From positions 1 through 64,000 of the IMG/VR virus record IMGVR_UViG_3300036791_000458: a DNA stretch of 64,000 nucleotides; one strand, given 5' to 3'. Each line of letters opens with the position of its first letter. The stretch's first letter is position 1. The notes under the pieces are model-generated. The model was given only the letters and a program-made list of their open reading frames with translations. It did not search any database and had not been told where the DNA came from. The DNA comes from a virus. A program made the position numbers and the translations under genes. Shown one piece after another: positions 9,799 through 47,502 of the stretch.

Positions 9799-10629
9799 TT
9801 AACCTGCTAACGCCTCTATGTCGTAGAAGTCACGAACATGATTTTTGAGTTCTTCGGAATCACTAATAACTCTCTTTACGTATTCGTAGCGTTCTTCGAG
9901 AAGACCTACGGGACGAATGCTCTTTCTACGATGGTATCCGTACCAGCCGACATGTTGCGCATGAGCTGTTATGGGATAGACTGAGAAGCACCTGTTGAGT
10001 CCCATCACCCGAAGTATCAATCCATCCTGCTCACAGTACTCATTGTCGAAACCGAATCCAAATAGATGGCGACGAATGTAGTACTCCATGTGAGAAAAGT
10101 AATCAGGAATCGCGTGCCTAATAATATGACTAAGAATTCCACGCTCAAAACAAACTCCCCAAGAAGCGTAATCCATATAGTTTTTGTAGTAACCGTTTTC
10201 AACGTCTGCGTTTGGTGCCGAGTGACGCTGGTTCATCGTCCCGATAGAACAAAAGCAATCCGGGAACAACTTCTGAATGTAATAATGCCACTCAAAAAAG
10301 TCCTTTGAAACCATGATGTCATCCTCAACCATGAAGACGTATTTTGCATCAGTTTCATAAGCTTCCCGGTAGGCAGTCAGAACGTTGTAGCTGTTACCAC
10401 TGTAGTTGTGAGTTGGGCGAATGATTATGTCAATCTGCAAAGTAGGAAACTTCGCGACTACAGTCGCAATGTCCTGTATTGGTGACTGGAAACCTTCATG
10501 AGAATCTACGCAAACCCGAATATCTAACTTTGCCGCATCCGGACAACGAGCAATACGCTCAAGACAAATCCAGAGCATTTCCGGACGACTGTATGTCGGA
10601 ATAATCAGAATGTCTTTTTGATCGCTCAT
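9799..10629 (-). CDS. GT-A fold glycosyltransferase (family 2-like)
   Basis: 276 aa. Starts KDILIIPTYSRPEMLWICLE, the usual GT-A N-terminal strand, with a DxD-equivalent F-M-V-E-D-D-I at about residues 98-104 preceding K-D-F-F-E-W. A C-terminal part with GFDNEYCEQDGLILRV corresponds to an acceptor-side ED/EQD motif. It is the last gene of a four-gene glycosylation cassette set between capsid and connector genes; start overlaps the preceding stop (ATGA). Likely transfers a sugar to a virion or host surface substrate; the acceptor is unknown. Confidence 0.78.
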   Translation of the reverse strand: MSDQKDILIIPTYSRPEMLWICLERIARCPDAAKLDIRVCVDSHEGFQSPIQDIATVVAKFPTLQIDIIIRPTHNYSGNSYNVLTAYREAYETDAKYVFMVEDDIMVSKDFFEWHYYIQKLFPDCFCSIGTMNQRHSAPNADVENGYYKNYMDYASWGVCFERGILSHIIRHAIPDYFSHMEYYIRRHLFGFGFDNEYCEQDGLILRVMGLNRCFSVYPITAHAQHVGWYGYHRRKSIRPVGLLEERYEYVKRVISDSEELKNHVRDFYDIEALAG

Positions 10630-11087
10630 AACTTCTCCAAAGTGTAACGAAGATCGTTAAATTCCCGTCTCACTTCTAGTTGCTTCCACCACTTGGAATA
10701 GTTCTCTCCAAAGTAGTAGCGACCAAAGTCCTGCCATACCGTCCCGGACTCTGGCCCCGGGCACCAGTAAAGAAAACTCTCCGGATGGAAAACCCGATAA
10801 TGAGTAGGATCACGGTACGAGTAATGATTGTCCCAAGCAGGAAGCCTCATGTTGAGAATCCCACCCTGTCTTAGTAGTCGATGACACTCATCTAGCCATA
10901 CCTGTACATCCATCTTCAAATGCTCAAACACATCTGTCGCAAGTATCTCATCAAGTGAACCGTCTTCTAAGGGCCACGGAATCTGCTGTAAGTCCCACGC
11001 GACATCCACAAAATAATCATGCTTCCACTTGTCGTGGTGAGTGTAACCTTCAGTCGGTTTGTTTCCACAACCTAGTTCAAGTTTCAT
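10626..11087 (-). CDS. Class I SAM-dependent methyltransferase
   Basis: 153 aa from ATG 11087, which overlaps the upstream stop as ATGA. Motif I is K-L-E-L-G-C-G-N-K-P at the very N-terminus, followed by V-A-W-D-L-Q-Q-I-P-W-P and an EILATDVFEHL segment (post-motif II) and LLRQGGILNMRLP. These are the motifs of Methyltransf_11-like enzymes. Short for the family. It probably modifies a sugar nucleotide or glycan made by the adjacent glycosyltransferases. Confidence 0.82.
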   Translation of the reverse strand: MKLELGCGNKPTEGYTHHDKWKHDYFVDVAWDLQQIPWPLEDGSLDEILATDVFEHLKMDVQVWLDECHRLLRQGGILNMRLPAWDNHYSYRDPTHYRVFHPESFLYWCPGPESGTVWQDFGRYYFGENYSKWWKQLEVRREFNDLRYTLEKL

Positions 11088-11632
11088 TGCTTCACCACTA
11101 TCGCGGTGTTTCTCCAATCAGCATTCTTCTCTTTGATCAGTCTCGCGTCAGAGTTATCTCGCAAAAAATCCGTAAAGACTTTATTGAGCTGCGGAAATAC
11201 ATGATGACCAACGTCATCAAATACCAGACACCCACCACGTTTCAACAAACGCCAAGAGTTAGTTAAGTCGGCATTCGCGCCCTCTGCACTATGATCACCG
11301 TCTACCGTAATCAAGTCGAACTCTTCGCTTAAGATAGGAACTAGAACTTTTGAGTCGCCATCTAAAAAAGTTACATGAGCATCAAACAAATCTAATACCG
11401 GAATTATATGCTCGTGATTCGACAATCCGTGGTCACAGTACTTTGGATTCCAGATGTCACACAAAACGATTCTAACCAAAGAAGCATTCACTAGAACCGT
11501 TCTCAGAGAACCACCACCATCTACACCAATTTCGAGGTAACTCTTCGGCCTGATCGATTTACACGCGAAGCACAGGGCATCGTGAAGGTCTTGCCCCGGA
11601 ATCCCCGACCATTCCCAAACCAGTTCCATCAA
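11084..11632 (-). CDS. Class I methyltransferase, Methyltransf_24/CmcI-like
   Basis: 182 aa. S-Y-L-E-I-G-V-D-G-G-G-S near residue 31 is motif I; FDLITVDGDHSAEGANADL at about 106-124 is the V-D-G-D-H/D motif typical of Methyltransf_24 and cephalosporin-hydroxylase-like proteins; GGCLVFDDVGHHVFP follows. The start overlaps the upstream glycosyltransferase stop. Part of the 9.8-13.2 kb glycan modification cassette. Confidence 0.8.
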   Translation of the reverse strand: MMELVWEWSGIPGQDLHDALCFACKSIRPKSYLEIGVDGGGSLRTVLVNASLVRIVLCDIWNPKYCDHGLSNHEHIIPVLDLFDAHVTFLDGDSKVLVPILSEEFDLITVDGDHSAEGANADLTNSWRLLKRGGCLVFDDVGHHVFPQLNKVFTDFLRDNSDARLIKEKNADWRNTAIVVKQ

Positions 11633-12540
11633 GCAACCCCTGCCATCACATCAAGATTCTTTTCGAATACTTCCCTGTCCAAACGAAATTGTTCACGAGC
11701 ACGTTCCCGAAACAACTCTATCTGCATATCAGTCATATTGAGTGCTATTGAAACTCCGTCCATTATCGCGTCCGGTGACACGTAGTGAAGACTCGCGGAG
11801 TTATATGGTTTAGTTCGATCATAAGGAACCATGATTGCAGCCGAGCACTCATTCATAGGAGGCGCATCGGTAGTGATTACTATCGCGCCAACCCCTAAAC
11901 CTTCATGAAGCACATGACCGTAACCTTCATAGGCAGATGGCATGATATGAAACAAATGACTATTCATCAAAGGCACCATTTCTTCATCGGTGACTCTTTG
12001 TATCCAAGTAACGTTTTTCTGCTTAGGGCGATAATACTCAGATACTACAGTTAGCTGTGAATCGATATTTCGCCACGCTCTCAGTATAGAATCAGTGTTT
12101 TTGAACTGAGATTTCCCCGCAACATGAAGAAACTTTCTCTCCCGTTCAATTTCCGGAACGTAAAAGTCTAATGCCTTCCAACCGAGATAGTCGATACTGA
12201 ATCTCGTTTTTGATTGGTTCTGCCAATCCACACGTCTCTTCTCTCTAAAAATTTCAGCACAATCTTTAGTCTTTGCGAATACCTTGTCTATCTCTGGAAG
12301 AAGATTATCGAAGTACCACCACTCAGCATTAGGTATCACCCATTGTTCACGCGCACACTTGAATAGTTGTGGTGCGACTAGCTCAACAAAGATGTTGAAG
12401 TCTACTTCCGGACACTCAATATCATTCCACATGACCTTGGAGACTTCCACGCCGCGAGACGATAGCTCTCTACCGAGCATTTCACAGTCTCTCTGTAGTC
12501 CAACACCGTTGCTCAAATTGGATATGATGTTAACCCGCAC
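11629..12540 (-). CDS. GT-B type glycosyltransferase (GT4-like)
   Basis: 303 aa from a GTG at 12540 (VRVNIISNLSNGVGLQRDC), with AAGG upstream; longer in-frame versions only read through the preceding gene. G-V-G-L-Q-R-D-C marks the glycine-rich N-terminal loop, FLHVAGKSQFKNTDSILRAW the second Rossmann domain, and PSAYEGYGHVLHEGLGVGAI the E-x(7)-E donor-binding motif of retaining GT4-like enzymes. It overlaps the preceding glycosyltransferase gene by 11 bp. Confidence 0.8.
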   Translation of the reverse strand: MRVNIISNLSNGVGLQRDCEMLGRELSSRGVEVSKVMWNDIECPEVDFNIFVELVAPQLFKCAREQWVIPNAEWWYFDNLLPEIDKVFAKTKDCAEIFREKRRVDWQNQSKTRFSIDYLGWKALDFYVPEIERERKFLHVAGKSQFKNTDSILRAWRNIDSQLTVVSEYYRPKQKNVTWIQRVTDEEMVPLMNSHLFHIMPSAYEGYGHVLHEGLGVGAIVITTDAPPMNECSAAIMVPYDRTKPYNSASLHYVSPDAIMDGVSIALNMTDMQIELFRERAREQFRLDREVFEKNLDVMAGVA

Positions 12541-13219
12541 TTGTTGCCTTCGCCTCAAGAAATTCAACCGGAAGTTCTTCCAAAGGAAGTGTCTGCCACC
12601 AGTTACCATCCGTAAGTCTGTACTCGCTCGTATTGTTCCCATGAACACGAGCAACCATCGTCTTCTCTCCGTCCACACTGTGAATCTGATTATTAATCCG
12701 CGCCTTAACTACAAAGGCATTATCCTCGCCTATATTCTTACATTCGAAGTTGTGCTGTTCCCAAAACTCACGGGTATAGCAAAGACTAGAACCACATGAG
12801 TACTCAGTGCTGGGATGAGTGTACTTGTAGAGTTGTTTTTCTCTTGAATCAAAAAATAATAGCGAATAAAAACCAACTACACTTTTCCCAGAAGAATTCA
12901 TCGTTTTGACTTGCTTAGTAATACGATCACTGGCTGACCAATCATCGTCATCGAAGTGAATGAATACCGAACCTTTGCCAAGTCGGTTCGCGATATTACG
13001 CTTTGCACCTATTGACTGCCTAGTAGGATAAAACTCAGACATGACAGGACGGTAATAGGTCACTCCCGGTACACCTTCACACAAGTCTTTGACTATGTCG
13101 TAGCCGTCATCGACAACTATCAATTCCTTTTCCTGCCAGTCCTGTTTTTGATAGCACTTCAGCGCGGAGACTAAAAAGTCACGTCTGTCCGCCGTCGGCA
13201 TTATGCAAGTGACTAACAT
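12530..13219 (-). CDS. Family 2 glycosyltransferase
   Basis: 229 aa from ATG 13219 (MLVTCIMPTADRRDFLVSAL), the usual GT2 N-terminus. ELIVVDDGYD is the first Asp motif and VFIHFDDDDW the DxD metal/donor site; KNIGEDNAFV is the ED acceptor motif. An in-frame ATG 30 nt upstream would add ten residues encoded by a strong hairpin, so the shorter start is preferred. First gene of the four-gene glycosylation cassette. Confidence 0.82.
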   Translation of the reverse strand: MLVTCIMPTADRRDFLVSALKCYQKQDWQEKELIVVDDGYDIVKDLCEGVPGVTYYRPVMSEFYPTRQSIGAKRNIANRLGKGSVFIHFDDDDWSASDRITKQVKTMNSSGKSVVGFYSLLFFDSREKQLYKYTHPSTEYSCGSSLCYTREFWEQHNFECKNIGEDNAFVVKARINNQIHSVDGEKTMVARVHGNNTSEYRLTDGNWWQTLPLEELPVEFLEAKATSAG

Positions 13220-13227
13220 AAGAATTA

Positions 13228-13253
13228 AGAGATGCTTCCGGAGAAGCATCTCT
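13228..13253 (-). terminator. 11-bp hairpin with UCCG tetraloop between decoration gene and glycosylation cassette
   Basis: Perfect 11-bp inverted repeat (AGAGATGCTTC ... GAAGCATCTCT) closed by a four-base loop; on the minus-strand RNA this is a cUCCGg tetraloop of the very stable UNCG class, followed by UUAAUUCUU. It could be a terminator or an mRNA-stabilising hairpin just before the glycosyltransferase start. Confidence 0.6.
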
Positions 13254-19154: not shown

Positions 19155-19469
19155 TCATGTCTCCACCGTGTCTTGTTCTAACAAGGCAGCTTCTTCAACA
19201 TTGACACTGGCACTCAATTGTATATCTAGCGAAACTACCTGCTGGAGTAAGATATCCATTGGCTCCATCGTCATGCTCGGTGGTTCGATAAGCAAATCCA
19301 TTCTCAGTGTATTGAAATCAAGGAATAGAGCATCAAGAAGAATCTTCGGAACAACTGGTACAGTTCCGCCCCACGGGGTTAAACCCCATTCCTCAACACC
19401 CCAGCCCGTATCAGGCTGTGTTCCACCCCACGAAGAAGAATTCCACGGTGCTGATCCCCAAGGTGTCAT
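19155..19469 (-). CDS. Trp/Gly-rich hypothetical protein
   Basis: 104 aa; ATG overlaps the upstream stop as ATGA. The N-terminal 37 residues are a Trp-Gly-Pro-rich repeat (TPWGSAPWNSSSWGG and VEEWGLTPWGG), followed by an amphipathic beta/helix part with alternating Leu/Asp. Such W-G repeats occur at N-termini of some phage structural proteins. Function unknown. Confidence 0.6.
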   Translation of the reverse strand: MTPWGSAPWNSSSWGGTQPDTGWGVEEWGLTPWGGTVPVVPKILLDALFLDFNTLRMDLLIEPPSMTMEPMDILLQQVVSLDIQLSASVNVEEAALLEQDTVET

Positions 19470-22447
19470 GAAATCAACTCAAATCCAAATTGCTCAGAGC
19501 GTTGTTTCAGTAGTTCCCTGTCTCGTTTAACCGACTCTTCGTTCCACGCGACCTTGTACACTTCATCCATTTGCCCGTCACCGTTGTGAAGAGGATGATC
19601 ATGATGTAGAATCGCGTCTTTGCACCAGAAGTATTTTCCTAGTTTCTTTGCGCGCCCAGTCAGTTCGTTGTCACAACCGACATGGTTGTAACCCGTGTGG
19701 AAAAACTCCCCGCCTATCAACGGAAGTAGCTTTTTACCAGCCAGCCAGTGAGTCGCGAGTTTGTCACCCCAGACACCGTCATTCAAACCTATCAGACCAT
19801 CAAGATTCGGGAAGTTCTCGAGCATTGAATCAACCGCGTGACGAAGGAAATCTTTTTGGGGAATTACATCGTCGCCCAAGAACAATATCAGTTCCCCATT
19901 AGCTTGCTCTACACCCTGCGCAACCATCACCGGACAACCCTTACGATCTTCAAGAGAATCCTGCATAGAGATTACTTCGTAGTTAGAATAGCCAACAGTT
20001 TCCGGTAACATGGTCAGCAGTCTAAGCCATTTCTCTTTTCTTTGTGGTTGGACGGTTGGAATTACGATTGAAACTTTTGGTTCTTGTGTATGCAGTTTAA
20101 CTCGAACCGGAACCTTTGGCGCTATACTCAACCCGTATAGTTTGTGTAGCACATCCTTGTCTGCTTGGTTTGTTCTACTTTGATACATGAAAATTGGATC
20201 AAAGCTACTACCTGCGTCGATGTAGGTTCCGGATGGATCGCCCTTCGCGAGTTCTGCAATCCATACCTTTGCCGCGAGTCCCGCACAGAAAATGAAAATC
20301 TTTCCTTCACACGAGTGTTTAAGCACTTCTGGCAGGATTCTTCTATGATCTTCGAACGCTTCAGTCGGACTTATACCTACATAATTTTTGATCTGTAGCA
20401 AGTCCATGACACCGGAGCGTAAATCACTGGGGCCGACAAACACTTTCTTGTCTGGCGGGTAGTCCTTTACCGCCATCCAAAACTCTTTGACCTTCTCAAG
20501 ATTGGAGTCAGTCCGATGAAGAAGCGTGTTGTATTCTTTTTGATTGTCAAAGTCTACAACATAGGCACGACCTTGAAGATAACGATATGCCTCCCGTAGC
20601 TTTTCTGCGAGTTCCACTGAGTAGGACTGGCCATCACAGTTTTTTCCCACGTCACCCCTCATGCACGCCATCTCACCATCACCACGCTTGACAAACGTAA
20701 AGGGAATTCTATTCCGAATCCTGCGAGTCAAGTCTTCGATAGTTACCGGAATCGGATTGAGCTTTTTGATCCAGATGGAATCAACAACTTCCACCTCACC
20801 AAGTTCATCCTTAACCGCATTCATTACTTCCGGCCACGTTGTAGTGTAGTCATGACCACAAAGAAGTTTCTTCGCCTTCGGTTTCCACAACTGGATATCG
20901 CGACGAACGGCGTCATAAGAGTGCTCCGCGTCAATGAATACCATGTCGAATGCACCATCAGGATAGTCGCCTGCTGCGAATTCCATGTTTCTCACATTGA
21001 CTTTCAGGTTCCGAAACGGTGCCATGTTCTTAAGGAAGTTACCGTACACATCGATATGTTTTGCTGCTTCCTTCGTCAAGTCCCGTACATCAGCAGAACC
21101 CTGAAAGTGATCGATTGCAGTCACTAGACCGTGAGGACACCCGGAACACAAAGCGTGGGTAGACTTTCCCTGCCAACTTCCCAGTTCTACAATTGACTGC
21201 ATGGTAGATGCCGTCTTGTATAGCCATAAAAGCTCAGGGTAGGTCATCCAACCTTCGATTGAAGGATCAGCGTAGGGAAAATAAAATTGTGTGTCACGAT
21301 GAAAATCCGGATTGAATGGTTCGAATTCAAGGGCTTTCATTAGATGCTCCTGCGCCTTGTCTATCTTACCCATCCAACCGTTTGCCCAGTAAAGTAAAGC
21401 GTGGGGTTCTGAGGTATAGTGACGGTGATCATTTGCGTAATATCCGTTCCAAGGTATCTCCAAAGATGCGGCAGCATAGCAGGCAGTAGCTTGATAGTTT
21501 TGGTTGTGTTTGTAGAAGTTGGCAAGTCGTAGTAAGGATTCTCTACGATTGCAATCGACATAGAACGCCTTGTTATAGACCTCAACCTGTTTTTCCGGTT
21601 GGTTAAGAATTCCATAAGCATCTCCCATAAAAATTAGACTCTGAGCACGTTCTGCGTCCCAACGGTTCATGGCTACATGACGAGTAAACTCGTGAATAGC
21701 GGACTTCGGATGACCTGTCCACAATAGCTCACGGCCTAAATAATGACTTTGGCGATCCTCATCCGGATTCATGAAGGCATCATAGGCGAGTCCCACAAGA
21801 TACCGTGAGCGATGATTACGGTTAGGTTCCTGCCAGTGTTCTAGGTAGAGAACGGTTTCCGGTAGCATAGACCGTGTCGCATACAGTGAAGCCTCACGAG
21901 GGGACAGAACCTCATGAACTACATTTCTCCACTGCAACAATCTCCGGTCATAGAACTTGCTTTGAATGAACTTCAATGCGGGATTACCGTACTGATCATG
22001 ACTGAAGCAGAAGTTATACTCGAACTGTCCGACACCATTTTGAATCAGACTATTAATGGCATCGATATCTAATGTAGTAAACTGCTCATCACAATCCGCG
22101 AAAGACACATGATCGGATGTCGCGCATGACGCGGCATAGTTACGTGACGCGGAAAAGTTGAATAGCTTATCCCCCGGATTCACTATCGGGGACTCACCGC
22201 CCACCACAAACTTATGGTTTATTTTTTGCGCGAGACTGGTGTTGATGGTAGTAACGAATTTTTCACCTGCCTCAAACACAACACAACCGAGTGAACGCGC
22301 AACATCTGTAGTTCCATCGGTTGACCCGGTATCAACAAGGACAATCTCACCCTGCCTAGACTGGAAATCCCTGAGTGAAGAAACCAGTCTAGGCAGAGTA
22401 TTCGCTTCGTTCTTCGCGATCAGCACTATACTAAAAAGGGGCTTCAA
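19466..22447 (-). CDS. Multi-domain glycosylation protein: GT2 - TPR - methyltransferase - GT-D - GT2
   Basis: 993 aa from TTG 22447 (GTGAGG with 5-6 nt spacing). Residues 1-220: family 2 glycosyltransferase (FSIVLIAKNEANTLPRLV, EIVLVDTGSTDGT, SFADCDEQ). About 230-390: TPR-like helices (HPKSAIHEFTRHVAM, EPHALLYWANGWMG, KAQEHLMKALEFEP). About 410-560: class I methyltransferase (SIVELGSWQGKSTHAL, DMVFIDAEHSYDAVRRDI). About 570-760: GT-D domain with the RGDGE signature at 588-592, as in DUF1792 glucosyltransferases. About 785-990: a second GT-A domain (KVSIVIPTVQPQRKEKW, LILFLGDDVIPQKDF). Lies next to fibre and capsid genes; probably assembles and methylates a glycan on virion proteins (inference). 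Confidence 0.85.
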   Translation of the reverse strand: MKPLFSIVLIAKNEANTLPRLVSSLRDFQSRQGEIVLVDTGSTDGTTDVARSLGCVVFEAGEKFVTTINTSLAQKINHKFVVGGESPIVNPGDKLFNFSASRNYAASCATSDHVSFADCDEQFTTLDIDAINSLIQNGVGQFEYNFCFSHDQYGNPALKFIQSKFYDRRLLQWRNVVHEVLSPREASLYATRSMLPETVLYLEHWQEPNRNHRSRYLVGLAYDAFMNPDEDRQSHYLGRELLWTGHPKSAIHEFTRHVAMNRWDAERAQSLIFMGDAYGILNQPEKQVEVYNKAFYVDCNRRESLLRLANFYKHNQNYQATACYAAASLEIPWNGYYANDHRHYTSEPHALLYWANGWMGKIDKAQEHLMKALEFEPFNPDFHRDTQFYFPYADPSIEGWMTYPELLWLYKTASTMQSIVELGSWQGKSTHALCSGCPHGLVTAIDHFQGSADVRDLTKEAAKHIDVYGNFLKNMAPFRNLKVNVRNMEFAAGDYPDGAFDMVFIDAEHSYDAVRRDIQLWKPKAKKLLCGHDYTTTWPEVMNAVKDELGEVEVVDSIWIKKLNPIPVTIEDLTRRIRNRIPFTFVKRGDGEMACMRGDVGKNCDGQSYSVELAEKLREAYRYLQGRAYVVDFDNQKEYNTLLHRTDSNLEKVKEFWMAVKDYPPDKKVFVGPSDLRSGVMDLLQIKNYVGISPTEAFEDHRRILPEVLKHSCEGKIFIFCAGLAAKVWIAELAKGDPSGTYIDAGSSFDPIFMYQSRTNQADKDVLHKLYGLSIAPKVPVRVKLHTQEPKVSIVIPTVQPQRKEKWLRLLTMLPETVGYSNYEVISMQDSLEDRKGCPVMVAQGVEQANGELILFLGDDVIPQKDFLRHAVDSMLENFPNLDGLIGLNDGVWGDKLATHWLAGKKLLPLIGGEFFHTGYNHVGCDNELTGRAKKLGKYFWCKDAILHHDHPLHNGDGQMDEVYKVAWNEESVKRDRELLKQRSEQFGFELIS

Positions 22448-22458
22448 TTGAACCTCAC

Positions 22459-24375
22459 TTAGTTGCCAAACTTTATCATCTCTCCACCATTCACGGTGAA
22501 TGAGTTATTACCAGAGGCAGTAGCGAAGGTGCCTATGAGCGTAATTGTTTGTGAAGCAGAAAAATCAACTGCCTTGGTAACAACCTGATTGACATCGATT
22601 TTTGGCGTACTGGTTGCTTGACCAAGTTTCAGATTGCCAGAGACCGAACAAACGCCTTTAGTCCCGGTTGTACGCCGAATGATAGTAAACTCAACTTCAA
22701 ACGGATAGTCAGTCGATTGAGATGGCACAGTCTGACTCGCGAAGCTGAGTAACGTCACGACATTCTTCACTGCTAGTCTAATCTGAAACGATGTTGAAAC
22801 CCCGATACGAACCGTTCCAAACGCATGAATCTTCAAACCCCTGCCAATCGCGTCTAAGTATCCCGCAGACATAGCTGGCCCAGTATACAAGTACTGATCT
22901 TTAGTGGTTGACGCGGAAGCAGTCGTGGTATCAACTTTCACATCCAAGACTGCCTTGCTAGAATCGGGCGGTTCGGGAGTTGGTTCTGGGGGTTCGGGAG
23001 TTGGGTCGGGGGGCTGAGAACCACCGCTGAGAGTAACATTCTCAAACGTTTCTGGTGCCATCTTATTCTCCAAACTAGGCATGCCCTGAACTTCAACATA
23101 CAACGTATAGCTACCAGCTACTGGTGCCGAGACTTTACTCAAATCAAACTGCTTCGTATCTCCGGGCATGACTGTAGCGAGAAGGTAAGCGGTTTCACCG
23201 TCAGTAGTTCCCCACAAGTTATACTGGCGAACTGTGTTTTCATTTCCGGTGACTGTAAAACTCAATAGGTTACCAGACAAACTTGCCTTTATTCCAAGTT
23301 TTGTTCTGACACCACCTTGGACGGCGGAACCTTCTTCAAAGTCATCAAGTATGATGGTAGCAAGAAAATCAATCCGCCCACCACCCTTGACATAGTCTGC
23401 ATTCGCCTTCCAAGTATCCAGCCACGTCTGTCCGCCATTTTGACTGATATACTTTCCTAGCGACCACCCGGTGCTACCTGTTAGTGTTCCGTTGAATCCC
23501 GGCCAACAAGACGTGACGTGAATTAGATCGGGATGAGAATTGCACGCGGGAAAGAAACTCTTCGTCAAGTAGTCAATACCGGATGGACTCGCGGAGCTAT
23601 CCGCGTTTGAATCTAGCCATGAAAGACTACCGTCGCTCCTCGCTATGTTGAATCCATTTGCCTGATATTGAATCAAGAGAGGATTGGAGTGTGATTTAAC
23701 CGCGTCACTCACTTTCGTCCAATTTACATTATTACCCGCAACTGAAGCTACGTTCCAAAGTAAGAGCATAGGGCGGGAGTCACCTTTAAACGTGCAGTGC
23801 TCATACTTCGGACTCGAAGCATAACGATCCATCACATGGTTTATCGCGTTGATGATATCAGATTGCATCGTAGAAGGTGTACTACCTTGGTTGCCGAAGT
23901 ACTGCTGATCAATCATGATCATGAAATTCAAACCCAGATTCTCACACTCAGTCACCCATAGATCAACTGTTGCATCGTTTGTGCACGTAGTCTTTGTCGG
24001 GTGATACCAATCTGGAATGAGAATGTCATAACCACGGTCAATCATATCTTGCACGATGGTTTTGATTGTAGCCGGGTCGGTGTCATTCACCCCAATATCA
24101 GGATGATTCGAACGTCCCCACCACAACATCGAATGCATCGCAATACGACCTGTCCAGTTTGCAGGCATCAGATTCCTGACAGACTCTTTACTGATAGTCA
24201 TCGGAGCGGCTGCGTTCTCAGAGTCATCAAACCAGTTTGAATCAACTGATAACCAATTCCCATCGTGGTTGGTTTTGCCAGTGAATAGGTCTGGATAGTT
24301 CGCCTTGTTGTAGTCAGGAGAAGATGTCACGTTGTGTGCTGTAAAGGACTCTACGGTTCTAGTTTTAAACGCCAT
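22459..24375 (-). CDS. TIM-barrel glycoside-hydrolase-like protein (GH71/GH99-like) with fibre-type C-terminal domain
   Basis: 638 aa. Residues 45-345 look like a (beta/alpha)8 hydrolase: [76 protein letters not shown] and [14 protein letters not shown] beta-sandwich follows, then a Pro/Glu linker (PEPPEPTPEPP) and a C-terminal domain (about 500-638) that is also the C-terminal domain of the 925-aa collagen-like fibre, ending VNGGEMIKFGN. A paralogue without that domain lies at 31240-32628. Likely a tail-associated polysaccharide depolymerase or glycan-binding protein; the GH family is a tentative call. Confidence 0.6.
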   Translation of the reverse strand: MAFKTRTVESFTAHNVTSSPDYNKANYPDLFTGKTNHDGNWLSVDSNWFDDSENAAAPMTISKESVRNLMPANWTGRIAMHSMLWWGRSNHPDIGVNDTDPATIKTIVQDMIDRGYDILIPDWYHPTKTTCTNDATVDLWVTECENLGLNFMIMIDQQYFGNQGSTPSTMQSDIINAINHVMDRYASSPKYEHCTFKGDSRPMLLLWNVASVAGNNVNWTKVSDAVKSHSNPLLIQYQANGFNIARSDGSLSWLDSNADSSASPSGIDYLTKSFFPACNSHPDLIHVTSCWPGFNGTLTGSTGWSLGKYISQNGGQTWLDTWKANADYVKGGGRIDFLATIILDDFEEGSAVQGGVRTKLGIKASLSGNLLSFTVTGNENTVRQYNLWGTTDGETAYLLATVMPGDTKQFDLSKVSAPVAGSYTLYVEVQGMPSLENKMAPETFENVTLSGGSQPPDPTPEPPEPTPEPPDSSKAVLDVKVDTTTASASTTKDQYLYTGPAMSAGYLDAIGRGLKIHAFGTVRIGVSTSFQIRLAVKNVVTLLSFASQTVPSQSTDYPFEVEFTIIRRTTGTKGVCSVSGNLKLGQATSTPKIDVNQVVTKAVDFSASQTITLIGTFATASGNNSFTVNGGEMIKFGN

Positions 24376-24404: not shown

Positions 24405-27400
24405 CTAGTTATTCACTACCTCTATGATTGCTTCACTAGCGGTAATTGTATTTGAAGCATTACCAGTTTTAATAGAAAATGATAAGATGCCATTCGCTAT
24501 TGTCGTGTCGAAGGCACTCATCGCTGGTTGAATAATCTGAATTGGGACAACGGATATACCAGTCAAAGCTGTACCGACTGCTGCGCCGCTTGTATTGAAC
24601 AATATGGCTATCGCCATTCCTGTGCCAGCAGCACCAACGCTTCTAACAGTGAACATGATTTGGATAGCCCAAGCTATGTTAGTTCCTGTTGTAGCTTGAG
24701 CGGCGAATGTAAAAGCACATATCGATGCATCTGCTGTCGTACCAGCAGTTCCCCAACGCATTGTAAACACTGGCGCGGAAGCATTACCACCAGTAGCAAC
24801 ACCCAACATATGACACTGAAAAACAGTACCTGCAACTAATCTATTTGCAGCAAGTGCAGCAGTTTTTACTGCAATTGTTTCCGTTTGACTGATTGCAGCT
24901 GTCGCAGAAAGTAGTGCAGCTCCGCCCGTACCAACACCAGCACCAGTGTAACCAGTCGCGCCTGTAGATGAGGCTGATCCTGCTACACCAGTATAACCAG
25001 TGTAACCAGTCGTACCTTGAGTTCCGGCAGGGCCAGTATATCCAGTCGGGCCAGTTACTGTACTTGGTGTTCCAGCAGACCCAGTGTAACCAGTTGGCCC
25101 GGTTACGGTAGATGAAGCTCCAGTGTATCCGGTGTAACCCGTATAACCAGTCGCACCTGCTTGAGCCATCAAAGCCCAGAACGAAGTATTGGTCGGAAGA
25201 TTTCCAGTAGACGGAGCAATACAAACGTAGCTTGAATTCTGGTAGCTAACTACATCATTGACTCCATACGTGGTGCCTGCATTGTAAGCACCTCTCCAAG
25301 TTAAAATCGGAATTGGAGTACTTGGCGCGACTACACCAGAACGAGTTGCGACAAGGTTAATACTTACATCTGCCATCGTGGCATCTTGAGTAGCAGGTGC
25401 AAGAATTGTTAATCTATCACCCGGATTAGCAGTTACCACTAAACCACTGGAAGAAAATGTTTCTACCCCTGATGTATTGAATGTGCAAGTTCCAATTTGC
25501 ACTCCATTCTTGTATATGGTGTAGACGGCAGTTGCAGTTGGATTAGTACCTACTGATGCCTGAGAAGTTGGAGTGTTGAAGTCAGCAGGAAATTGAGCAG
25601 GAGCAGCTACCGTACTAATACAAACTAGTTGACTGGCGGTAGGTTTTCCTGCAACAGCAGAAACAACATGCGTAAAATTATCAGTGCCTAATCCCGTATA
25701 ACCAGTCGGGCCGGTATAGCCAGTGAAATTCCCTGCTCCAGTGTAACCAGTTGGCCCGGTGTAACCAGTATAACCAGTGAAGTTTCCTGCTCCAGTGTAA
25801 CCTGTGTAGCCAGTCCTTCCGGTGTAACCAGTAGTACCAGTCGGGCCTATAAGTCCAGTGTAACCAGTTGGCCCGGTTACGGTAGAAGATGCTCCAGTGT
25901 AACCAGTTGGCCCAGTGACGGTAGAAGAAGCACCCGTGTAACCAGTGTATCCAGTGTATCCGGTAACGGTTGACGCAGCTCCCGCTGGCCCGGTATATCC
26001 CGTGTAACCAGTGAAGTTTCCTGCTCCAGTGTATCCAGTTGCACCTTGAGTTCCAACACTTCCGGTGTATCCGGTGTATCCAGTCGCTCCTACTACACCC
26101 TGAATTCCCTGAGCACCTGTATATCCGGTGTATCCGGTTGGGCCTTGAGTTCCAGCAGTACCTTGACTTCCGGTGTAACCTGTAAATCCAGTTGGCCCGG
26201 TTACTGTTGAAGCTGCGCCTACAGAACCCGTGTAACCAGTGTAGCCAGTAGTACCTTGAGTTCCGGCAGTTCCTTGGCTACCTGTATATCCGGTGTACCC
26301 GGTTGGGCCTTGACTTCCAACAGTACCTTGACTTCCGGTGTAACCTGTATAACCCGTGTAACCAGTAAAAGCACCCGTCCCAGTGTATCCGGTGTACCCA
26401 GTTGACCCCGTGGGGCCGGGATTCCCTGCGCTCCCCACAGAACCCTGAGCACCAGTGTATCCGGTGTATCCAGTGTAACCAGTCGAACCTTGAGTACCTT
26501 GAGTTCCGGTGTAACCAGTATAGCCAGTCGGCCCGGTAGAACCAATTCCAGCAATACCAGTGTATCCGGTGTAACCAGTTGAACCTTGAGTTCCGGGACT
26601 TCCGGTGTAACCTGTATAACCAGTTGAACCTTGAGTTCCCGGTGTTCCGGGAGTACCTTGTGCACCCGTGTATCCTGTATAACCTGTTACTCCTTGTGTG
26701 CCTTGAGTTCCGGTATATCCGGTGTAGCCAGTCGAACCAATAGTTCCAGCAGTGCCTTGACTACCAGTATACCCAGTGTAACCTGTAGCTCCCTGACTAC
26801 CTACATTCCCAGTGTATCCGGTGTATCCTGTCGAACCTTGAGCACCAGTGTAACCAGTTGGGCCTGTAGTTGCAGAACCGGAACCCGCAGGCCCGGTGTA
26901 ACCAGTAGGCCCGGTTGGGCCACCACCTGACGGCCCAGTAGGCCCAGTTGGGCCTGTAGATGACGCGGCACCCGCGCTTCCCGTATATCCGGTGTAACCA
27001 GTACTTCCAATCGCACCTTGAGTCCCGGTGTATCCGGTATATCCAGTTGCTCCGATAGTTCCAGCAGTACCTTGATTACCCTGAGCACCAGTATATCCAG
27101 TGTAACCTGTAGCTCCACTACCCGTATAACCAGTGTAACCTGTGGCTCCTTGTGTACCCGGAGTTCCGGTAGTTCCGGCAGTACCTTGACTTCCGGTGTA
27201 ACCAGTCGGCCCAGTGTAACCTGTAGTTCCCTGTACTCCTGAAGCACCCGTGTAACCAGTCGGGCCAATGGTTCCTGCTGTTCCCGTGTAACCAGTTGGC
27301 CCTATGGTTCCTATACCAGTGTAACCAGTGTAACCAGTATACCCGGTGTATCCTGTCCCACCAACCCCCGGTGTACCTTGAGCACCAGTATAACCAGTTG

Positions 27401-27794
27401 GGCCTGTGAAGTTTCCTGCGCCAGTATAACCAGTGTATCCAGTCGTACCAGTCCCAGAAGCACCTGTATATCCAGTTGGGCCGATAGAACCCGGAGCACC
27501 ACCCGATCCCGTATAACCAGTAGGCCCGGTGTAACCAGTCCTTCCGGTGTAACCAGTAGCACCCGTAGAAGATGCACTACCTGCGCCTCCAGTATACCCA
27601 GTGTATCCGGTGTATCCTGTAGCACCAGTGTATCCAGTCGCACCATTCCCACCACCACCAGTGCCGCCACCTTGATTATTTTCTGCAAAGGTATCGATCT
27701 TATCAAAGTTTTGGTTGACGGCCGAGTCCCAACCAACTTCACCGCGAAGAGGTTTATAGAGACTTAGAAACGGAGTTGTTGTACCAGATGCCAT
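24405..27794 (-). CDS. Collagen-like tail fibre 1 (GxT/GYTG repeats)
   Basis: 1,129 aa from ATG 27794 (AAGAGG upstream); the start [19 protein letters not shown] matches the start of the second fibre. About 650 residues are Gly-x-Thr triplets dominated by [10 protein letters not shown] and GPTGYTG. Then comes a beta-sandwich (about 715-850), a [20 protein letters not shown] module of CBM5/12-like type, more collagen repeats, and a C-terminal beta-rich domain ending IIEVVNN. Collagen-like repeats trimerise in phage fibres (family knowledge). Thr and Tyr replace the usual Pro, and the Thr residues are possible O-glycosylation sites. Confidence 0.85.
24905..27650 (-). repeat. Tandem collagen-triplet coding repeats, fibre 1
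   Basis: Coding repeats of 9-30 bp that give [18 protein letters not shown], in two blocks (about 25690-27650 and 24905-25170). Near-identical units such as the coding sequence for [11 protein letters not shown] recur many times, so copy number may vary by recombination. Confidence 0.85.
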
Positions 27795-27801
27795 AAACCT
27801 C

Positions 27802-28467
27802 TTAGCTTGATATGTAGAATAAAATCGGTGATGGTGTTGCGACAACAGCTTGTTTGAATGCAGCTACAAACGCCATCACTTGATAGTCTGTAGTTGTTGG
27901 TGTAAAAGTACCAGTCGCAGCAATTCCAGTAGTGCTTGCATAAGCTAACATTTCTTCCATGTAGGCAAGTCCATCAGAAGTAGTAACGACTGAACTAAAA
28001 CCGGAACCGGGCGTGAATGTTCTACCACCTTGTCTAACCTCTGATGCGAAACCCAAAACTAAATCGCCAGACTGGGCAAGAACAGCAGTAGCACTCGAAG
28101 TCCAGTTTGGTGAACCCGGATCAAAACCATTATCTAGACCTGTTGCTTTATCCAACGGAGATGCGAGAGTACCAGAGTATTCTGCCACGATTAGTTCTGC
28201 CTGATTAAATGTAAACGTTGCTACAATACTAGTCACACCAGCGGGTGACGCCGGAAGAAAGTAAACACCAGCCAGAAACGGCGTTGTTAAATTTTTTGCA
28301 ATCGTTAAGCTGGTGCCTGAATTAGTTTTAACTGTAATTGCACCCGATGTTCCAAGAACAGTTAGATAAGCAACAATCAGACTATTTGCCTGCGAAGCAG
28401 TAATTGTTACAGTCAAGCTAGTTGCACCAGACGTAACTCCTGCCTTTTGTTGAACTCTAGTTGCCAA
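27802..28467 (-). CDS. Beta-rich structural protein, hypothetical
   Basis: 221 aa, probably from TTG 28467 that overlaps the stop of the upstream fibre gene (FGN-stop). Strand-rich with Ser/Thr/Ala-rich composition: [68 protein letters not shown]. The pattern (long alternating strands ending in MAFVAAFK) is common in uncharacterised soil-phage proteins. Placed between the two fibre genes, so probably a fibre accessory or adhesin. Confidence 0.65.
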
Positions 28468-31234
28468 ACCGTACTACCTCTCCACCATTCACGGTGTATA
28501 TATTGCTTGCTGATGCAACACTAAATGTACCTAGAAGAATTGGCGTTTGTTGAACTGTCATGTCAACCGCATTACTTACAACTTGCTCAATATCAAACTT
28601 CGGTGTATTCGCTGTACCAGTCGCAGCCTGAGCAACCATCAATTTACCGACACAACCGAAAATACCTGTCGTACCAATTGAACGACGAATGATAGTAAAT
28701 TCAACTTCCCAAGCATAACTGACTCCAGCAGTCGGAATCGTCTGAGCTGGAAACATAAGCAAGGTAGTAACACCTTGAATAGCTAACCTAATCTGGAAGG
28801 TTGTTGTAGAAGCTGCGAGATTAACTGTCCCGAAGGCGTGAATCTTCAAAAATCTTCCTGCAACGTCTAGGTATCCTGCTGGAATCACAATACTATACAA
28901 AGTTTGGTCACCAGTTGTATTTGCAGAAAGAGTTGAAGTCGTAATCTTTGCATCACGAACGTAAAGTGCTTGCGCGGAATCCAGTAGATCAGCATTTGTA
29001 TCTAAACCCGCGTAACCGCTGGGTTGATTTTTGTTAGCAGTTAATTCTGCGCCCGTTGTACCACCTGAACCCGAAGGCCCAGTATATCCGGTGTATCCAG
29101 TCGCGCCTTGACTTCCAGAACTTCCGGGAGCACCTTGGGCACCAGTGTAACCAGTAGCACCAGTTGCTGTCGCAGCTCCCGCTGATCCTGTATACCCGGT
29201 GTACCCAGTCGCGCCACCCTGTGCCATAACATTCCAGAACGATACGTTCGTCGGAACGTTACCAGTCGATGGAGCAATACAAATGTAACTACCATTTTGA
29301 TAGCTAACCGCGTCATTCACTCCATAGGTAGTACCACTAGCGTAAGCACCTCTCCAAGTTACAATTGGAATTGGACTACTCGGTGAGACAACCCCTGATC
29401 TTGTTGCAGCTAAAGTGATACTCACGTCTGATAGTGTGGTATCTTGAGTTGCGGGCGCAGTCACCGTCAATCTGTCACCCGGATTTAGCGTTACAGTTGT
29501 ACCACCCGTTGTGGTGAACGTGAAAACACCAGCAGTAGAAATTGCAATCGAACCTACTTGAGTACCATTTTTTTGAACAGTATAGGTTGCAGTAGCCGTG
29601 GGATTAGTTCCAACCGAACCTTTTGAGTTTGGAGTCGCGAAGTTCGCAGGAAACTGCATAGAAGTCGCGGCGGTATAGATCATCACCGACTGACTTGCAC
29701 TCGGTTTTCCTATGACTGCGGAAACCAAGTTACTAAAATTATCAGCCCCTAAACCAGTGAATCCGGTGTAACCTGTTGCACCAGCTATACCTTGAGGGCC
29801 AGTTGAACCCGTCGCTCCCGCTGGGCCTTGACTTCCCTGTGGGCCTTGAATACCTTGACTTCCCTGTGGGCCAGTAGAACCTTGTATACCTTGCGCGCCT
29901 TGTGGGCCTTGAATACCTTGACTTCCCTGTGGGCCAGTAGAACCTACAGAACCCGGTGCTCCCGGTGTTCCTTGAGCACCAGTGTAACCAGTATAGCCAG
30001 TGTATCCAGTCGGCCCCACAACGCCTTGTGTACCTTGAGCACCAGTGAAACCAGTGTACCCAGTGAAACCAGTTGCACCTATAGTTCCGGGAGTACCTTG
30101 AATACCAGTGTAGCCAGTGTAACCAGTGAAACCAGTGTATCCAGTCGCGCCCAAATTACCAGTTGTACCTTGAACACCCTGAGCACCAGTGTAACCAGTA
30201 GGCCCAGTTGAACCTTGAATACCAGAATTACCCGTGTATCCGGTGTAACCAGTATAGCCAGTTGAACCTATAGTTCCCGCGACTCCTGTATACCCGGTTG
30301 GCCCGGTAATTGCAGATGCGGGGCCAGTATAGCCGGTGTAACCAGTATAGCCAGTTGAACCTGTAGAAGACGCGCCACCCTGTGGCCCGGTGTATCCTGT
30401 CGCACCAGTTGCTGACGCGTTTCCTGCTGGGCCAGTTGTACCAGTATATCCGGTGTAGCCAGTCGAACCAGTCGCAGAAGCTGAACCTGCTGGCCCGGTA
30501 GTTCCGGGAGTACCTTGAATACCAGTGTAGCCAGTGTAACCAGTGAAACCAGTGTATCCAGTGAAACCCGTGTAACCAGTTACACCCGGAATACCTTGAG
30601 CACCAGTATATCCGGTGTAACCCGTGTAACCAGTTACACCCGGAATACCTTGTATTCCTTGGCTTCCGGTATACCCGGTGTAGCCAGTATATCCTGTAAC
30701 TCCCTGATTACCTTGAGCACCCTGTATTCCTTGACTTCCGGTATAACCAGTGTATCCAGTGAATCCCGTGTAACCTGTTACGCCTTGTGGCCCTTGTATT
30801 CCTTGACTTCCAGTGTAGCCAGTATATCCTGTAACTCCCTGATTACCTTGTGGCCCTTGTACTCCTTGACTACCTTGACTTCCGGTGTAACCTGTCGCGC
30901 CTTGTGGGCCTACCGGGCCTTGATTTCCCTGTACACCTTGAACACCTTGAACACCCTGATTGCCTTGAGCACCTTGTGAGCCTACCAAACCTTGTGGCCC
31001 TTGACTACCTTGTGGCCCTTGAGTGCCTTGAGCACCTACTGGGCCTTGTGGCCCTGTAGTTCCGGTAGTTCCGGCAGGGCCGGTGTACCCGGTATAACCT
31101 GTCGCACCAGTCGCACCACCCGAGTACGCTCCATCCAGAATATCCCAGTTCGCGTTAACCTGATCACCCCAGTCAAACGAATCGTTTGCAGGTTTGAAAA
31201 GGTTTAGATTAGGAGTTGTCGAACCTGTAGCCAT
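28457..31234 (-). CDS. Collagen-like tail fibre 2
   Basis: 925 aa. N-terminus [20 protein letters not shown] followed by [18 protein letters not shown] is the same attachment module as fibre 1. About 450 residues of collagen triplets mix GxQG-type units ([19 protein letters not shown]) with GYTG units. A beta-sandwich and [20 protein letters not shown] module match fibre 1. The C-terminal domain (about 780-925, ending [11 protein letters not shown]) instead matches the hydrolase-like protein at 22459. The two fibres therefore share stalk and middle modules but differ at the tip. Confidence 0.85.
29755..31125 (-). repeat. Tandem collagen-triplet coding repeats, fibre 2
   Basis: Main collagen block of fibre 2, with recurring units coding [19 protein letters not shown] and [14 protein letters not shown] short second block lies at about 29060-29220. 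Unit composition is more Gln/Val-rich than in fibre 1. Confidence 0.8.
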
Positions 31235-31239: not shown

Positions 31240-32628
31240 TTATGCTGGAGTGGAAAACTCCAAAAGCTGCGAAACATTCCCAAAAGCAACATTTGCAAAC
31301 GTTTGCGCCGCCATATGATTTTGAAGACTAGGCATACCTTGCGCCTCAACATAAAGCGTGTATACACCAGCAGTAGGAACCGAAGTGCTACTCAAATCAA
31401 ACTGTTTTGTACTACCCGGAAAGACTGTCCCAAGTAAGTAGGCATTTACTCCGTCACTAGTTCCCCAAAGGTTATATTGCCGGACGGTGTTTTCTGTGCC
31501 TGTGATACTAAAAGTCACCAGATTACCGGATAGACTTGCAGTAATAACAACATCCGTTCTGATACCACCTTGAATTGCAGTACCTTCCTGAAAATCATCA
31601 AGTATAATCGTCGCGAGGAAGTCGATTCTTCCGCCACCATTAACGTAGCTAGCGTTTGCACCCCACGTATCTAACCATGTCTGTCCGCCGTTCTGACTAA
31701 TGTATTTTCCCAGTGACCACGATACACTTCCGGTCAATGTTCCGTTGAAACCCGGCCAGCAGGAACTAACATGAATCAAAGTTGGGTGAGAATTACAAGC
31801 AGGAAACCAACTATTCGTAAGGTATAAGATGCCGGACGGACTGGAAGTATTATCTGCATTCGAATCTACCCAAGAAAGACTGCCATCGCTCTTCGCAACC
31901 GTGAATCCACTATTCTGATACTGAATCAAGAGTGGATTGGAATGTGGAATAACCGCAGCGCTTACAGCATTCCAATCGACGTTTGCACCAGCCACGGCTG
32001 CTACATCCCACAACAGAAGCATTGGACGGGATACTCCGTTGAATGTGTAGTATTCGTACTTCGCGTTTCCCGCGTAGCGATCCATGAGATGATTGATTGC
32101 AGAAATTATGTCTGCCTGCATAGTCGCGGCTGTACTTCCCTGATTGCTGAAGTACTGTTGATCGATCATCAGCATGATGTTCATACCGACGCTATTCGCA
32201 CCAGTAAACCACAAATCGACAAGCGCGTCATTAGTAACCGTAGTCTTCGTTGGGTGATACCAATCAGGAATAAGAATGTCATAACCGCGAGCTTTGATGT
32301 CCTGTAAAATCTTCGTAATAGTTGCGGGATCACTGTCGTTTATTCCGATGTCAGGATGATTAGCCCGTCCCCACCACAACATCGAATGAATAGCAATACG
32401 TCCAGTCCAGCCGGAAGGCATTAGATTCCGAACCGTCTCTTTGCTAATGACTATCGGTGCTGCCGCATTTTCTGAATCGTCCATCAAGTTCGAATCTACC
32501 GCGAGATTAGTGCCATCATGATTCGTAGTGCCAGTAAACAACGATGGATAGTTAGTTTTGTTGTAGCCAGAGTTGTTCGACACGTTATGCGCGGTGAACG
32601 ACGCTACCGTTCTGGATTGAAACGCCAT
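31240..32628 (-). CDS. TIM-barrel glycoside-hydrolase-like protein, short paralogue
   Basis: 462 aa. Almost colinear with residues 1-455 of the protein at 22459 ([53 protein letters not shown]), then stops without the Pro/Glu linker and tip domain, ending LEFSTPA. The ATG overlaps the upstream TAA (TAATG). Either a depolymerase acting without the trimer tip, or a truncated duplicate. Putative GH71/GH99-like fold, catalytic residues not assigned. Confidence 0.6.
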
Positions 32629-34867: not shown

Positions 34868-36871
34868 CTATTCTTCTTCTTCCTGACCGTCACTAAAAAC
34901 CGGAACTAGAATGCACCTGCACGATGGATGAGTATCTTCGATTGGAATCGGTGCTTCAGAAAAGTCATATGGATTGTCATCCTCAAAGTCCAAGCAAACT
35001 TCACAAACGTCAACCTCGTTGGTAGTCAAAAAATTTAGCTTAGCTATGTTTCCAGCTTCTTGCCACGCGAGAAAATTTGACTGTACCTGAGCGTTACCTA
35101 TTTCGGTTCTCGCGATATTTGCTGCTCGTTCCTCTGAGAAGGTTCCCGCGTCCTGAATCGCCTGAGTCACATCCTGTATCGATGTAGGCTCAGAGAATGC
35201 GTCGGTAATAATCCGGTTGATGTCTGACCGCGTAGTGTCTGAGATAACCCACTTTGCATTAGGATTATCTACTAGCTCACCGTCTACCCATTTCTTTCCG
35301 ACCATCTCTGCGGCTCTGTCTTGCGCGAACTGTTGGGACGCTTGATCCGCTGACGCTATCACGTCATTGTCTGTGATATTCAATTCAGTTATGCCTTTGT
35401 CTGCGCCAACGCTCGTAGCACTCTCTAAAGCATCTTGCGCGTCTTTTACTTCTTGGACTCCAGACTCAGAAATTATTGCGTCTTCTTCCGTCTCTCCCAC
35501 TTCCGCTAAAGTCTCACGAAGCGCGTCAGCGTTATCTTCCGCTTGTGTCAATAGTTCGAGTAGTTGATCATCGGTGAGAGGTGTTTGTGAAGTCGCCTGA
35601 GATACTAAACCATCTTGAAGCGGAGAAGGTAGCGCGTTATATCTATCTCCTGCGAGATTGAGTAGTCTCTGAACTACAGATGCTTGCATAGATGGTTCGT
35701 CTGCCTTGAATATTTTGCGCGTCTTTTTCACCCTGAGAGGTTTCAGTCTATCAATATGCTTACGAATGATGGAAAGAATTCTACCTTTTTGTTTCGCAAA
35801 GGCAGAAGAAACAGTATCTTGTAGCTTAGTCTGCGCGTCCGATAGCTGAGGATGCTTGTAGTCGGGATCAATCTTGATCTTATGTGCCTTTGCAATCGCG
35901 ACTTTCCTTGCGCGGTCACTGATTTTGATCTTCCTGATAGCGACTAACTTCACACGAGAAGGAACTATCTTGCGTATAGTCAAACCCTTGACAGGTACAT
36001 CTGCATCCACTTGCAGTTCATGTAAGAAGTCGCGACTCACTCTATCGCGAATTAGTGCCTTGTCTGGTATGTTCAATGAAGGGATTGCAAGAATCTGTAT
36101 TTTTTCAGGAGTAGTACCGCGAAAGTCTTTTAAGCTGCCAAATATGATAGTGTTTTGACCGCCACCCGCAGAATCTCTTCCCCACAAATAGGTGTTGTAG
36201 GAATCTTTGAGCACTGAGTCACGGTGTTCCGGAGTATCTTTGCCAACACTCATATTAACTTCGTAGTTTCTCCGGGCATTGTCTAACGCGCCATTTAAGG
36301 CACCAGCAGATAAACCACTACGTAGCTCATCTTCTCTCGCAAATTTCTCTATGGTAGAAAAATCTGGGTTATGAGCAAGTTCCGTCATCTGTTGGATGTC
36401 ACGCTGAATGTCCCGAGCATCATTTATGTTCGTAGTGAAGCTAACTGCTTTTGCCTGTCCCGAACTACCCAACCCGCCTTTATTGTCACTTGAACCTGCC
36501 TGCAATAAACCGGACTGTTGTATATCATCGCCATGAGAAGTCACGTGGTATAGTTCCGGGTACTTCACAACTGCTTCATCTTTGGACAAGGGGATGCCCT
36601 TAACTACAGAACCTTCCCCTTGTCCCGCTCGCCCAATCCACGTGTTATACGTTTCCCCCCACGACTTATTCTCTTTGATGTCGTCTTTGGTTGCATAGAC
36701 CTTTGGTTCATCTGATTCTGAAAAGCGACCATGATCATCACGTGACTGATCTTCGGAGTATTTTTTGACTGGGCGAGTAAGCTTAGTAGGTTTAGTGCGC
36801 GAAGATAAAGTAGGCAGACTTTCATCTGGTGGTGTCCAACTTCTAGCTATCAGTCTAGTTAAGTCTGCCAT
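34868..36871 (-). CDS. MuF-type head morphogenesis protein with N-terminal linker and ART-like domain
   Basis: 667 aa from ATG 36871, which shares bases with the upstream stop (TAATG). A cargo linker [14 protein letters not shown] lies at 37-50. Residues 105-290 begin [18 protein letters not shown] and contain [13 protein letters not shown], a pattern seen in ADP-ribosyltransferase-like domains (YHVT ... I-x-x-GL). Residues 515-660 are the Phage_Mu_F domain: [25 protein letters not shown] at 622-626 and HPSCRC at 648-653. MuF proteins sit at the portal inside the head and are classic carriers of effector domains (family knowledge). Confidence 0.82.
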
Positions 36872-47410: not shown

Positions 47411-47436
47411 ACTGTATCTCAATTCTTTTTTTGAAA

Positions 47437-47472: not shown

Positions 47473-47502
47473 TCATTCGATGCTACGTAAGGCAACCAAC
47501 TC

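What the first reader, a model, noticed from the sequence alone, without database searches (positions are those of the whole stretch)
19466..22447. Five-part glycosylation protein in a phage
GT2, TPR, SAM methyltransferase, GT-D (RGDGE) and a second GT2 in one 993-aa chain next to fibre and capsid genes. GT-D enzymes are known from Thr/Ser glycosylation of bacterial adhesins, and TPR plus GT is typical of protein O-glycosylation, so a virion protein such as the Thr-rich collagen fibre is a plausible target.
Basis: partly seen in the sequence, partly recalled or inferred. Interest (0 to 1): 0.7.

Follow-up and report, generated by a model that had tools for sequence, protein, structure and literature searches.

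The report
Phage enzyme that sugar-coats collagen fibres
This virus of bacteria carries one long multi-part enzyme, made beside its own collagen-like tail fibres, that very probably attaches and decorates sugars on those fibres; relatives with the same two ends and interchangeable middle parts occur beside the same kind of threonine-rich collagen in many otherwise different viruses.

Summary
In detail: one 993-aa ORF on the minus strand (22447 to 19466) joins GT2, TPR, methyltransferase, GT-D and a second GT2. An 80% identical relative has the same five parts, with purifying selection in each. The GT-D call, only a weak HMM match, is confirmed by structure: model pLDDT 89, the three best PDB hits are all DUF1792/GT-D (VIA Z 15-16).

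The protein belongs to a large phage family with a fixed N-terminal GT2-TPR module, usually a fixed C-terminal GT2, and exchangeable middle modules (none, several methyltransferase types, GT-D, GT32). I found 34 distinct members in 11 architectures.

The family tracks Gly-X-Thr collagen. It occurs in 27/34 contigs with such collagen against 4/34 weak hits in control-collagen contigs (p about 1e-8). All 18 GT-D relatives, 12 on contigs not found through collagen, have Gly-X-Thr collagen within 4 kb. Five of six bacterial plasmid relatives sit beside such collagen too.

C. difficile SgtA (GT-A plus TPR, gene beside bclA3) adds O-GlcNAc to threonines of collagen repeats, and dGT1 (GT-D plus GT-A) extends glycans, so both halves have tested precedents.

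Best reading: a single-chain machine that O-glycosylates and methylates collagen fibres. Acceptor, sugars and purpose are untested.

The parts
19466..22447 (-). whole gene, 993-aa modular glycosyltransferase (P0001), TTG start
   Evidence: relative P0002 80% identical
21803..22447 (-). N-terminal GT2 (GT-A) domain, residues 1-215, DxD-like motif D118-C-D120
   Evidence: PF00535 E 1.6e-17; profile A3 matches GmaR and SunS in the PDB. The domain end is approximate
21278..21802 (-). TPR region, residues 216-390
   Evidence: PF13181 24.9 bits; profile A3 matches consensus TPR proteins, best 1.2e-38
20762..21265 (-). SAM methyltransferase (Methyltransf_24), residues 395-562, motif ELGSWQGKS
   Evidence: PF13578 E 9.9e-14 over the cut-off
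20111..20755 (-). GT-D domain, residues 565-779, RGDGE at 588-592
   Evidence: model pLDDT 89; Foldseek top three all DUF1792/GT-D; VIA Z 15.7; D-G-E invariant in 13 relatives
19469..20080 (-). C-terminal GT2 domain, residues 790-993, GDD at 858-860
   Evidence: PHROG 14945/14775; profile of 8 relatives with invariant GEFFHTGYNH
24405..27845 (-). 1146-aa collagen-like fibre, proposed acceptor: 207 triplets counted, 134 of them Gly-X-Thr
28457..31234 (-). 925-aa collagen-like fibre, second proposed acceptor: 165 triplets counted, 81 Gly-X-Thr
22459..24375 (-). 638-aa fibre-operon protein between the collagen gene and the enzyme, function unknown
   Evidence: no Pfam or PHROG family
27802..28467 (-). 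221-aa protein between the two collagen genes, overlapping both ORFs
   Evidence: no family; homologue in L001

Best explanation
A single-chain, cytoplasmic O-glycosylation machine for the phage's own collagen fibres. Shown: one chain with GT2-TPR, methyltransferase, GT-D and GT2 modules, encoded at the end of a tight operon with two Gly-X-Thr collagen fibres, and a phage-wide family that tracks such collagens. Inferred: (1) the TPR region holds the newly made collagen chain; (2) the N-terminal GT2 puts the first sugar on threonines at the Y position of Gly-X-Thr, as SgtA does on BclA3, probably before the triple helix closes; (3) GT-D and the C-terminal GT2 add further sugars one after another, as dGT1 does on Fap1; (4) the methyltransferase caps or tunes a sugar by O-methylation. 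The sugars probably stiffen the fibre without hydroxyproline and set its outer surface for adhesion, shielding or protease resistance. The exchangeable middle modules would change the glycan while start and end stay fixed.
For: Fold and family of each part. Collagen-first test: GT2-TPR family in 27/34 contigs with Gly-X-Thr collagen against 4/34 weak hits in other phage collagens, p = 1.2e-8; 18 of the 34 at E < 1e-140 plus one strong hit cut at a contig end, against none; counting these 19, p = 5.5e-8. GT2 in general 31/34 against 10/34. Enzyme-first tests: 18/18 GT-D relatives (about 12 distinct; 12 contigs outside the collagen list) with Gly-X-Thr collagen within 4 kb on the same strand; L007 and L014, found by the C-terminal GT2, both have it; Peribacillus, Priestia (two), Niallia and P. 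sonchi plasmids have it beside the gene, 5 of 6 looked at, the main collagen gene with threonine in 0.92-1.0 of Y positions; phage DSL-LC01 too. Tested precedents: SgtA (PMC7157674) and dGT1 (PMC5063993). The phages are not one lineage: the window's terminase is in 1 of 42.
Against: No experiment. Distant jumbo-phage relatives (PaBG, Lu11, Y3; 24-27% identity) and one Paenibacillus plasmid have no such collagen nearby, so the GT2-TPR fold alone does not fix the substrate. 7 of 34 Gly-X-Thr contigs show no family member; contigs are fragments. The SgtA sequence could not be compared directly. Threonine at Y is also common in bacterial collagens held by hydration, mostly without known sugars (PMC8968730).
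Confidence: 0.75

Rival explanations
1. It glycosylates other virion proteins, such as the major capsid protein or the TIG-domain head protein, and stands beside the fibres only because of the late operon.
For: Mycobacteriophages glycosylate capsid and tail tube proteins with their own enzymes (reported in PMC12363180). Distant jumbo-phage relatives lie near head protease genes without collagen. The gene lies about 4 kb from the putative capsid gene.
Against: The family tracks Gly-X-Thr collagen in 27/34 against 4/34 and in 18/18. The window has a separate GT/methyltransferase cassette right after the putative capsid gene, a better candidate for the capsid.
Confidence: 0.12
2. It remodels the host surface glycan (O-antigen, capsule) for superinfection exclusion.
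For: A usual role proposed for phage glycosyltransferases (PMC7029224); phrog_841 GtrB-like is a weak hit.
Against: GtrB-type enzymes act with a flippase and a membrane Gtr (own knowledge); neither was noticed in the window. The gene is among structural genes. Collagen coupling extends to spore-forming bacteria.
Confidence: 0.07
3. Chance neighbours: enzyme and collagen gene are both frequent passengers of variable fibre islands, without working together.
For: Fibre regions are hypervariable and glycosyltransferases are common there (PMC7029224).
Against: Control collagens sit in comparable phages yet give 4/34 weak hits. Stand-alone relatives of the C-terminal GT2 have no such collagen. The pair recurs in bacterial plasmids and has a proven case in SgtA-BclA3.
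Confidence: 0.04
4. It glycosylates hypermodified phage DNA.
For: Some phage glycosyltransferases do (cited in PMC12619734).
Against: TPR region, link to collagen, and no base-modification gene noticed in the window.
Confidence: 0.02

Closest known systems
SgtA-BclA3 of Clostridioides difficile (PMC7157674)
   Same: N-terminal GT-A plus C-terminal TPR; gene next to a collagen-like gene; acts on threonine of Gly-X-Thr collagen repeats
   Different: 358-aa single enzyme of a spore coat; no fused methyltransferase, GT-D or second GT; sequence not compared here
dGT1 (DUF1792/GT-D plus GT-A) of the Fap1 adhesin pathway in Streptococcus parasanguinis (PMC5063993)
   Same: GT-D followed by a GT-A domain in one chain, doing successive glycan steps on a repeat adhesin
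   Different: Two parts only; extends a glycan begun by other enzymes; the phage chain also carries GT2-TPR and methyltransferase
Priestia megaterium pBM500 and related Bacillales plasmid clusters
   Same: GT2-TPR relative beside collagen with threonine in nearly all Y positions, with further GT and methyltransferase genes
   Different: Functions on separate proteins; bacterial; 23-32% identity to the phage N-module
Mycobacteriophage capsid/tail glycosylation (Che8 gp110, Corndog gp38; reported in PMC12363180)
   Same: Phage-encoded glycosylation of its own virion
   Different: Capsid and tail-tube acceptors; no collagen link reported there; sequences not compared here
GmaR (Listeria flagellin) and SunS
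   Same: GT2 enzymes that glycosylate proteins or peptides; both match profile A3
   Different: Other acceptors; no fused methyltransferase, GT-D or second GT (own knowledge)

Membership tests
GT-D (DUF1792) glycosyltransferases | GT-D fold | tested here: met
   Model pLDDT 89; 4pfx/4phr/5v4a top three; Z 15.2-15.7, next family 10.8
GT-D (DUF1792) glycosyltransferases | Pfam curated score (PF08759/PF22882, 27 bits) | tested here: not met
   Window 16.1 bits; best relative 24.5 bits. Hence a divergent relative with the fold, not a Pfam-grade member
GT-D (DUF1792) glycosyltransferases | acidic motif D-x-E | tested here: met
   D-G-E invariant in 13 sequences; its role in GT-D is from own knowledge
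GT-D (DUF1792) glycosyltransferases | sugar transfer activity | not testable with these tools
   needs enzyme assay
GT2 (PF00535), N-terminal domain | curated score and DxD | tested here: met
   64.4 bits for the whole protein against 23.3; D118-C-D120
Methyltransf_24 (PF13578) | curated score | tested here: met
   52.5 bits against 26.3
TPR repeats | curated score of one repeat | tested here: inconclusive
   24.9 against 25.7 bits in the window; relatives pass (L028, L292); profile A3 matches consensus TPR
SgtA-like collagen O-glycosyltransferases | GT-A plus TPR in one chain | tested here: met
SgtA-like collagen O-glycosyltransferases | gene beside a Gly-X-Thr collagen gene | tested here: met
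   window operon; family-wide
SgtA-like collagen O-glycosyltransferases | sequence kinship with SgtA | not tested
SgtA-like collagen O-glycosyltransferases | transfer to threonine of collagen peptides | not testable with these tools
   needs assay
dGT1-like bifunctional GTs | GT-D followed by GT-A in one chain | tested here: met
   residues 565-779 and 790-993

The most novel reading that the evidence does not exclude
A widespread phage glycan assembly line: fixed first module (priming GT2-TPR), usually a fixed last module (C-terminal GT2), and a swappable middle cassette of methyltransferases, GT-D and GT32 within one polypeptide, so that phages change the sugar coat of their collagen fibres by exchanging domains. 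This would be a second, glycan-based layer of fibre variation besides sequence change.
Probability: 0.45. Interest if true: 0.85.

Novelty: new variant of a known kind. Interest (0 to 1): 0.76.

Why it matters
Collagen-like fibres are common in phages, which lack an obvious way to make hydroxyproline. If Gly-X-Thr fibres are O-glycosylated by a dedicated enzyme, that answers how they are stabilised and coated, and shows a protein-glycosylation pathway packed in one chain. It gives a sequence rule (GT2-TPR gene beside Gly-X-Thr collagen) that predicts glycosylated fibres in many phages and in Bacillales plasmids, and a set of compact enzymes for making glycosylated collagen. It also gives a virion target for phage glycosyltransferases that papers usually assign to DNA or host-surface modification.

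Tried and rejected
Whole-chain AlphaFold with a two-row alignment failed (pLDDT 30) and was not used. L003, offered as a GT-D relative, is a chance NGDGEMACM match in a tail protein. A PF08759 search of the own record gave nothing, with no control ringing. Searches of bacterial genomes for the whole protein and for GT-D found no relative. GT-D searches of named phages and plasmids found none. An artificial ORF fusion was rejected, because gene, order and parts are conserved in L001 and related architectures recur. Common descent of all these phages as the main cause of the link was rejected: the window's terminase is in 1 of 42, and the N-modules form 17 clusters at 60% identity. A DNA-modification role found no support.

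Full report
OBSERVATION. The ORF is real and lies on the minus strand, TTG at 22447 to stop at 19466, 993 aa. Pfam gives GT2 (1.6e-17), one TPR (just under its cut-off) and Methyltransf_24 (9.9e-14); GT-D is only hinted at. PHROG adds the C-terminal glycosyltransferase. A relative at 80% identity in IMGVR_UViG_3300036828_000363 has the same five parts and gene order. dN is 0.08-0.22 and dS 0.96-1.36 in the four modules, so each is under purifying selection, GT-D the loosest.

GT-D. Thirteen related domains were aligned and modelled (pLDDT 89). Foldseek's three significant hits are the three DUF1792/GT-D entries, the next at E 0.06. VIA-align gives Z 15.7, 15.6 and 15.2 for these and 10.8 for TagA. 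Sequence scores stay under Pfam's cut-off, so it is a divergent GT-D.

FAMILY. The C-terminal GT2 led to L007 (GT2-TPR, methyltransferase, GT2) and L014 (GT2-TPR, GT2). Both have a Thr-rich collagen gene within a few genes. A profile of the GT2-TPR module (A3) then gathered 34 distinct full members in 11 architectures: N; N-C; N-MT24-C; N-MT23-C; N-MT24-GTD-C (the window); N-GTD-MT11-C; N-MT24-GT32-C; N-MT24-GTD-GT32-C; N-MT24-C-GT32; and two forms lacking the C-terminal module in the same ORF, one of them cut at a contig end. A tree of the N-module needs at least 15 changes of architecture, and GT-D appears in three separate places on it; many forks are weakly supported, so the exact number of gains is open.

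LINK TO COLLAGEN, starting from collagen. Contigs of 15 kb or more with at least 20 triplets in the scanned contig (Thr at Y 0.5 or more; control under 0.4) were taken, 34 in each arm. Profile A3 hit 27 of 34 against 4 of 34 (best control E 5e-10), Fisher p = 1.2e-8. Eighteen of the 27 were at E < 1e-140 and one more was a strong hit cut at a contig end; none in the control; counting these 19, p = 5.5e-8. The other eight were at E 1e-22 to 1e-31. GT2 of any kind: 31 against 10.

LINK TO COLLAGEN, starting from the enzyme. A scan with the GT-D profile found 18 viral loci (about 12 distinct), 12 of them on contigs absent from the collagen list. All 18 lie in GT2-TPR chains or their split forms, and all have Gly-X-Thr collagen (Thr at Y 0.61-0.81) 37 nt to 4 kb away on the same strand. 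The profile did include members first met through collagen, so this test is only partly independent. The N-module of L014, which was not found through collagen, matched 13 plasmids of Bacillales. Of six loci inspected, five have a collagen gene beside it with Thr at 0.92-1.0 of Y positions. Phage DSL-LC01 shows the same at 0.65-0.70. More distant relatives in jumbo phages do not, nor do stand-alone relatives of the C-terminal GT2. The window's terminase is found in 1 of 42 of these records, so the phages are not simply one lineage.

MECHANISM. In the window the genes run collagen (925 aa), 221 aa, collagen (1146 aa), 638 aa, enzyme, with overlapping ORFs or gaps of 11 to 29 nt. The two collagens hold 215 Gly-X-Thr triplets in the runs counted; Tyr is more frequent than Pro at X. 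C. difficile SgtA has GT-A plus TPR, is encoded next to bclA3 and adds beta-O-GlcNAc to threonines of its GPT collagen repeats in vitro (PMC7157674). dGT1 joins GT-D and GT-A and performs successive steps on Fap1 (PMC5063993). The window protein reads as an SgtA-like initiator, a methyltransferase and a dGT1-like extender in one chain. Shown: parts, fold, family, linkage. Inferred: acceptor, order of steps, sugars, methylation of the glycan, benefit to the fibre.

KNOWN OR NEW. I found no paper in the held library that links phage collagen with a dedicated glycosyltransferase; papers on phages with both assign the enzymes to DNA or host-surface modification. Virion glycosylation itself is known from mycobacteriophages. 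I rate it a new variant of a known kind: chemistry with precedent, but a new single-chain, modular, phage-borne form.

LIMITS. Contigs are fragments, samples are not random, members share ancestry, SgtA was compared by description only, and no experiment exists.

Noticed in passing
window 9799-13249, minus strand: A second sugar cassette directly downstream of the putative capsid and TIG-domain genes: GT2, GT4-like, Methyltransf_24, Methyltransf_11 and a GT2-like ORF, conserved in L001. A candidate for capsid or head-protein glycosylation.
   Followed up: partly
window 36871-47476 and 51799-53466, minus strand: The tag KYSEDQARDxHGRF or KYSEDQARVPAGxxxGGQF occurs nine times (one further variant, KYAPDQPR), standing between unlike domains: zeta-toxin-like kinase, LigT-like, cytidylyltransferase-like, pyrophosphatase, PI3K-like, and in the portal C-tail. 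It could be a processing or packaging tag for cargo inside the head.
   Followed up: partly
window 22459-24375 and 31240-32628, minus strand: Two paralogous proteins (638 and 462 aa) flank the fibre genes and match no Pfam family; the sequence looks like a glycoside-hydrolase-type barrel (impression only).
   Followed up: no
L298, L299, L310; L301; L307: Split forms: the C-terminal GT2 as a separate ORF about 0.6 kb downstream, or the N-module broken over two ORFs about 0.45 kb apart; an inserted element or intron is possible.
   Followed up: no
L007 3222-4298: A radical-SAM-like gene lies between two GT2-TPR genes, beside two GT32-like genes and a 900-aa Gly-X-Thr collagen.
   Followed up: no
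L316 (Priestia megaterium pBM500) and L320 (Paenibacillus cellulosilyticus plasmid): Bacterial relatives lie with methyltransferase genes, in pBM500 beside a collagen gene with Thr at every counted Y position, and in L320 with spore germination and CDP-sugar genes: candidate spore-surface glycosylation loci.
   Followed up: partly
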